NCBI GenBank assembly: GCA_947627185.1
Contig: CANQVF010000009.1
Location: 1-64,000 of the forward strand
DNA from: an uncultured Clostridia bacterium
GTDB lineage: Bacteria > Bacillota > Clostridia > TANB77 > CAG-508
Reading direction: 5' to 3'
DNA: 64,000 nt
The notes below the pieces were generated by a model that ran no database searches, was not told the origin of the DNA, and worked only from the letters and a program-made list of their open reading frames with translations. This document shows positions 36,355 to 36,421 of the stretch, in pieces (position 1 is the stretch's first letter; every line of letters begins with the position of its first letter). A program made the position numbers and the translations under genes.

Positions 36355-36383
36355 TTGATTTTTTATAAATTATATATTATAAT
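36355..36383 (+). promoter_or_regulatory. Sigma-70 type promoter inside the invertible segment, directed outward to 36438 and the EPS operon
   Basis: TTGATT (36355-36360), 17-nt spacer, TATAAT (36378-36383). Confidence 0.7.
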
Positions 36384-36396
36384 TAGGAATAGTAAA

Positions 36397-36421
36397 TTCG
36401 TAAATTATTTAACTTTACGAA
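36397..36421. repeat. Right 25-bp inverted repeat (candidate recombinase core site)
   Basis: TTCGTAAATTATTTAACTTTACGAA; in the 5' UTR of the TnpB-like gene. Confidence 0.95.

What the first reader, a model, noticed from the sequence alone, without database searches (positions are those of the whole stretch)
36355..36421. Outward-facing promoter sits just inside the right inverted repeat: predicted ON state of a phase switch
TTGATT-17 nt-TATAAT ends 13 nt before the right repeat and points to the TnpB-like gene and EPS operon. It lies inside the segment predicted to invert. Inversion would move it to face the 35.1-kb side and place the recombinase 3' end with its terminator-like hairpin (35286-35332) next to the operon, giving a plausible OFF state. 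The repeat itself would be transcribed as a hairpin in the 5' UTR.
Basis: partly seen in the sequence, partly recalled or inferred. Interest (0 to 1): 0.85.

Follow-up and report, generated by a model that had tools for sequence, protein, structure and literature searches.

The report
Flippable promoter for surface-sugar genes
A gut bacterium carries a DNA segment that can probably flip to turn a surface-polysaccharide operon on or off, and the first gene it drives is a disabled relative of CRISPR-like nucleases with its own conserved RNA, an arrangement that recurs in many related bacteria.

Summary
In detail: TTGATT-17-TATAAT (36355-36383) ends 13 nt before the right arm of a perfect 26-bp inverted repeat (35243-35268 / 36397-36422) that encloses one intact tyrosine recombinase. 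In this AT-rich DNA the motif alone means nothing (64 found, 62.9 expected). Comparison makes it meaningful. In 12 of 12 loci (this one included), a TTG-17-TAnnnT promoter sits 5-13 nt from one repeat (0.11 expected) and a stronger hairpin lies at the other end. The repeat spacer varies between loci but matches within each pair. Both orientations occur: 4 ON (this window included), 8 OFF; the 83%-identical relative is OFF with the same 26-bp repeat. Polysaccharide genes follow in all loci that could be read. A second bacterial family has five such loci in one finished genome, one ON and four OFF. The 'TnpB-like' first gene is a nuclease-dead Cas12f/TnpB fold with a strongly covarying structured RNA beside it. 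So the ON-state phase-switch reading is well supported by sequence, though transcription and inversion were not measured. Invertible promoters for surface polysaccharides are known. Coupling to a dead TnpB plus RNA resembles csrA-tldR loci for flagellin; I found no report of it for polysaccharides. Guide and target stay unresolved.

The parts
35243..35268 (.). Left inverted repeat / recombination site (TTCGTAAA-N9-TTTACGAA core)
   Evidence: 26/26 complementary to the right arm; exact N9-spaced core found in this genome only at these two arms
35286..35332 (-). Terminator-like hairpin after the recombinase; would abut the operon after inversion
   Evidence: -23.9 kcal/mol, z -7.6; the promoter-distal end carries the stronger hairpin in 12/12 loci
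35329..36276 (-). Tyrosine recombinase inside the segment, the probable invertase
   Evidence: Pfam Phage_integrase 3.4e-27; R, HxxR, GH and Y motifs intact in the translation; carried inside the segment in 7 of the 12 loci
36355..36383 (+). Outward promoter TTGATT-17-TATAAT, facing the operon (ON)
   Evidence: Position near a repeat and 17-nt spacing conserved in 12/12 loci
36397..36422 (.). Right inverted repeat / recombination site, next to the operon
36438..37631 (+). Nuclease-dead TnpB/Cas12f-like protein, first gene of the operon
   Evidence: AF2 pLDDT 91.9; Foldseek to Cas12f E ~1e-15 and TnpB E ~4e-13; RuvC-I Asp absent in 72/72 homologs and RuvC-III Asp in 69/72
37625..37765 (+). Conserved structured RNA next to the TnpB-like gene (omega/guide-RNA-like; guide unproven)
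   Evidence: 21 of 34 pairs with changes on both sides, 0/500 shuffles; found in 15/394 genomes, all with the gene or a remnant
37784..47652 (+). Surface-polysaccharide operon: initiating sugar transferase, glycosyltransferases, UDP-galactopyranose mutase, Wzx-like flippase
   Evidence: Pfam and NCBIfam

Best explanation
Positions 35243-36422 form an invertible segment ('inverton') that phase-varies a surface-polysaccharide operon. The tyrosine recombinase encoded inside it recombines the two 26-bp sites. In the orientation seen here, the conserved outward promoter reads through the right site into the TnpB-like gene, its RNA and the polysaccharide genes (ON). After inversion the promoter faces away, and the recombinase with its terminator hairpin insulates the operon (OFF). 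Shown by sequence: the repeats, the intact recombinase, the conserved promoter position and spacing, the distal hairpin, both orientations among relatives, and the operon content. Inferred: promoter activity, inversion within one strain, and the ON/OFF expression states. The dead TnpB-like protein with its RNA is most probably a second regulatory layer, a TldR-like repressor of other surface loci or a cis-acting factor on its own operon; which one is not resolved.
For: Perfect 26-bp IR around an intact tyrosine recombinase. Same IR with the segment reversed in an 83%-identical relative. IR pairs in all 12 family loci with enough upstream DNA; arms largely conserved, ~9-nt spacer differing between loci but the same within a pair, as strand exchange by a tyrosine recombinase requires. 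Promoter 12/12 against 0.11 expected, 4 facing the operon and 8 away. Distal end always the more stable hairpin, 12/12. Some segments are promoter-only, ~165-245 bp, with no recombinase inside, so the promoter is the part that matters. Polysaccharide genes downstream in all 15 relatives inspected. Independent family: five loci in one finished genome, each with IR, TnpB-like gene, RNA and polysaccharide or sugar-nucleotide genes, one ON and four OFF.
Against: No reads or two-orientation evidence from one strain were available. The promoter boxes alone are at background in this AT-rich DNA. The related loci are not independent samples. A contig records only the major orientation in an assembly.
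Confidence: 0.9

Rival explanations
1. The promoter-like boxes are chance in AT-rich DNA, or belong to the divergent recombinase promoter; the operon has another promoter outside the segment.
For: 64 promoter-like sites in 7 kb against 62.9 expected; minus-strand boxes overlap the same TATAAT (TTTACG 36404, TTTACT 36396).
Against: The outward box is conserved in position and 17-nt spacing in 12/12 loci, including promoter-only segments without a recombinase gene. The minus-strand boxes are not evident at the matching place in the closest relative L050 on reading its sequence.
Confidence: 0.06
2. The segment is a small mobile element whose ends are the repeats; it inserted upstream of the operon and the two orientations are two insertions.
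For: Integrase-type recombinase (PHROG integrase family). Solo near-sites lie at other glycan genes (G000:C8:54191; L086:6040).
Against: Always at the same place before the TnpB-like gene. The spacer is the same within a pair and differs between loci. Recombinase-free versions exist. No second copy of the segment in the genome.
Confidence: 0.04
3. On the second layer (compatible with the inverton): the TnpB-like protein and RNA act in cis as an elongation or antitermination factor for the long polysaccharide operon, like UpxY in Bacteroides, rather than as an RNA-guided repressor in trans.
For: The RNA always lies ahead of the sugar genes in the predicted operon transcript; in L087 and L089 it precedes the TnpB-like gene. 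Its 3' tail is the same in all five loci of one genome with no other convincing genomic match. In G109 the RNA and operon persist beside a decayed tnpB remnant.
Against: The fold is that of RNA-guided DNA binders. Studied nuclease-dead TnpB proteins are DNA-targeting repressors (PMC13418256). I saw no obvious U-tract terminator between the RNA and the sugar genes in the window.
Confidence: 0.35

Closest known systems
csrA-tldR loci of Oscillibacter/Flavonifractor (PMC13418256)
   Same: Nuclease-dead TnpB-like protein with an adjacent structured RNA, downstream of an invertible promoter, in gut Clostridia, controlling a surface structure
   Different: There: serine invertase Hin, ~120-bp segment, FliA promoter, flagellin, guides with mapped targets. 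Here: tyrosine recombinase often inside the segment, sigma-70-like promoter, polysaccharide operons, no csrA seen, no target found
Bacteroides capsule loci (invertible promoter, upxY, upxZ, CPS operon; PMC7315117)
   Same: Several surface-polysaccharide operons, some switched by promoter inversion, with a regulator as first gene
   Different: Regulators there are an antiterminator and its trans inhibitor; here a Cas12f/TnpB-fold protein with an RNA
Clostridia inverton group 139 with tyrosine recombinase group 35 (PMC11892184)
   Same: Clostridia promoter-sized invertons linked to a nearby tyrosine recombinase, with flipping seen in culture
   Different: Its repeat motif was not compared here; TnpB is not mentioned in that paper's main text
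Salmonella hin H-segment
   Same: ~1-kb invertible segment carrying its own invertase and an outward promoter that drives a surface gene plus a repressor
   Different: Serine invertase with enhancer; flagellin; protein repressor FljA (from general knowledge)

Membership tests
Invertible promoter (inverton) with tyrosine recombinase | Inverted recombination sites flanking a promoter | tested here: met
Invertible promoter (inverton) with tyrosine recombinase | Intact tyrosine recombinase at the locus | tested here: met
Invertible promoter (inverton) with tyrosine recombinase | Both orientations found relative to the same downstream gene | tested here: met
   Between related genomes only
Invertible promoter (inverton) with tyrosine recombinase | Both orientations in one strain or population | not testable with these tools
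   No reads or same-strain contigs available
TldR (TnpB-like nuclease-dead repressor) | TnpB/Cas12f fold | tested here: met
TldR (TnpB-like nuclease-dead repressor) | RuvC catalytic residues lost | tested here: met
   RuvC-I Asp position 0/72 Asp, RuvC-III position 3/72; none has both
TldR (TnpB-like nuclease-dead repressor) | Adjacent structured RNA | tested here: met
TldR (TnpB-like nuclease-dead repressor) | Guide segment matching a target gene or promoter | tested here: inconclusive
   3' tail has no convincing conserved target
TldR (TnpB-like nuclease-dead repressor) | Represses transcription | not testable with these tools
   needs ChIP-seq and a reporter
Functional TnpB / IS200-IS605 element | Active RuvC triad, transposon ends and TnpA | tested here: not met
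   Triad lost; no TnpA-type transposase among the adjacent genes annotated

The most novel reading that the evidence does not exclude
A widespread Clostridia system in which each phase-variable polysaccharide locus co-expresses a nuclease-dead TnpB and its RNA from the flippable promoter, so that the locus that is ON silences its rivals (or licenses its own operon) by an RNA-dependent mechanism: an RNA-based counterpart of Bacteroides UpxY/UpxZ.
Probability: 0.45. Interest if true: 0.88.

Novelty: new variant of a known kind. Interest (0 to 1): 0.72.

Why it matters
Invertible promoters for surface polysaccharides are best known in Bacteroides; here is a parallel design in Clostridia where the operon's first product is a domesticated CRISPR-ancestor protein with its own RNA. 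It would extend the nuclease-dead TnpB regulators beyond the flagellin role described in PMC13418256, and it offers a ready test (a finished genome with five loci, one ON) of whether RNA-dependent regulators enforce one-coat-at-a-time expression.

Tried and rejected
Guide-target search: the RNA 3' tail was compared with its own locus, sister loci and whole genomes. In three g20 genomes one extra exact hit recurs, but inside a conserved AMP-binding gene on the antisense strand, so probably chance. The own-genome search gave only background-like hits. In G774 the 11-nt tail occurs six times exactly: five are the RNA itself and one is unrelated coding DNA. Rfam: no hit. PADLOC and NCBIfam: only weak Cas12f/TnpB matches.

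Full report
OBSERVATION. The sequence is as described: TTGATT at 36355-36360, a 17-nt spacer, TATAAT at 36378-36383, 13 nt, then the right arm 36397-36422 of a 26-bp repeat whose perfect reverse complement is 35243-35268. It is the longest exact inverted repeat with arms under 3 kb apart in the window. Each arm is a quasi-palindrome, TTCGTAAA-N9-TTTACGAA, the form of a tyrosine-recombinase core site. Between the arms lies one tyrosine recombinase, 35329-36276 on the minus strand (Phage_integrase E 3.4e-27), with the usual catalytic motifs present in the translation. Alone, the promoter match is worthless as evidence: the 7 kb around it hold 64 such matches, 62.9 expected.

COMPARISON. The closest relative of the recombinase (83% identity; L009 = CANQYM010000007.1, rabbit-gut MAG; = G032, L050) has the same 26-bp repeat, the same TnpB-like gene and a sugar transferase next, but the recombinase is on the other strand. 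Turned round, its segment shows TTGCTT-17-TATAAT 13 nt from the repeat, as here, and its recombinase-terminator hairpin lies beside the operon. The DNA left of the segment differs between the two genomes (SpoU methylase here, a histidine kinase there), so what is conserved is the segment plus what lies downstream.

A genus search for the recombinase and genus and family searches for the TnpB-like protein, with stretches fetched, gave 12 loci (window included) with enough upstream DNA in which a repeat pair could be defined. A thirteenth, the G033:C6 contig end (L054), has one clear arm and no clear partner and was left out. In the 12 loci the outer arms (CGTAAA/TTTACG and close variants) are largely conserved; the spacer varies between loci but matches within each pair. 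Exact TTCGTAAA-N9-TTTACGAA sites occur in G000, G032, G209, G362 and G202 only as this pair. Segments are either ~1.1-1.3 kb with the recombinase inside (7) or ~165-245 bp with the promoter only (5). Each has a TTGnnn-17-TAnnnT promoter 5-13 nt from one repeat (12/12; 0.11 expected) and a more stable hairpin at the other end (12/12). ON: window, L057, L053, L087. OFF: L050, L055, L056, L084, L086, L089, L090, L091. The promoter criterion was fixed after inspection and the loci are related, so these counts are strong but not independent.

OPERON. The window operon has an initiating sugar transferase (WbaP-like), glycosyltransferases, UDP-galactopyranose mutase and a Wzx-like flippase. In the 15 relatives whose contigs continue past the TnpB-like gene, polysaccharide genes follow (judged by reading the protein starts, only the window's own genes were scanned against family libraries).

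TNPB-LIKE GENE. It has 126 relatives at E <= 0.001. An AlphaFold2 model from 72 sequences (pLDDT 91.9) matches Cas12f (E 8e-16), ISFba1 TnpB (E 4e-13) and the dCas12f complex (9n9c, E 5e-10). The RuvC-I aspartate position is never Asp in 72 sequences, the RuvC-III position is Asp in only 3, and none has both. Position 380 is placed by the alignment to Cas12f; position 209 is placed by me from the strand and the GxDxG-like context. It is therefore a nuclease-dead family, not a transposon nuclease.

RNA. A noncoding stretch next to the gene (window ~37625-37765) is conserved and structured: 21 of 34 pairs have changes on both sides, 0 of 500 shuffles reach the observed values, and slid controls collapse. 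A covariance model finds it in 15 of 394 family genomes, 14 with the gene and one (G109) with a decayed remnant beside it. In L087 and L089 it lies between the switch and the gene. The helix GAAUAU/AUAUUC closes the 3' end, followed by GAG and a short tail. The layout recalls omega/guide RNAs, but a guide and target were not found, so I call it guide-RNA-like only.

SECOND FAMILY. A finished 4.4-Mb genome in another family (G774) has five TnpB-like loci (L193, L194, L195, L196, L227). Each has a ~350-360-bp repeat-flanked segment just upstream, the RNA downstream (R1 E 1e-7 to 1e-8 in four; the fifth found by its RNA tail) and sugar-nucleotide or polysaccharide genes after it. A conserved extended -10 promoter faces the operon in one locus and away in four. 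One ON of five fits one-at-a-time expression but is a single observation.

MECHANISM. Best reading: the recombinase flips the segment; ON transcribes tnpB-like, RNA and polysaccharide genes; OFF insulates them. Steps shown by sequence: sites, recombinase, promoter geometry, both orientations among relatives, terminator-like hairpin. Inferred: activity, in-strain inversion, expression. The role of the dead TnpB with its RNA is open between trans repression (TldR-like) and a cis role (UpxY-like).

KNOWN SYSTEMS. PMC13418256 describes csrA-tldR loci with hin and ~120-bp inversions of a FliA promoter, and guides against flagellin genes. PMC11892184 describes Clostridia inverton group 139 tied to a tyrosine recombinase. 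[quoted passage not shown] A full-text search for TnpB with polysaccharide, invertible and recombinase returned no paper; that library lacks most subscription papers, so absence there is weak evidence of novelty.

Noticed in passing
L060 (G037:C65) 69-275, 1693-1899, 3269-3475, 4875-5081, 7737-7942: Five parallel ~182-bp distance repeat-flanked segments, with TTGATA-like/TATAAT boxes near one end, ahead of surface proteins with pilin-like N-termini, beside a relative of this recombinase: a multi-inverton surface array
   Followed up: partly
L185 3692-3716 (G000:C8:54191): A solo near-copy of the recombination site (one mismatch, no partner within the 8 kb fetched) beside a short glycosyltransferase-like fragment at the end of another glycan gene cluster; possibly a trace of cassette exchange
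   Followed up: partly
L086 6040-6064: A third near-site 2.5-3.8 kb from the repeat pair, among polysaccharide genes; larger rearrangements may be possible
   Followed up: no
L109 (G109:C6) 240-500: Decayed tnpB-like remnant with the RNA still in place ahead of a sugar transferase; suggests the RNA may be kept without the protein
   Followed up: no
L053, L054, L055, L056, L100 (G033): One genome with several TnpB-like copies, some contigs ending inside the gene, i.e. several phase-variable loci that probably broke the assembly
   Followed up: partly
window:35121-35161: Strong conventional terminator-like hairpin left of the segment, downstream of the SpoU methylase gene
   Followed up: no
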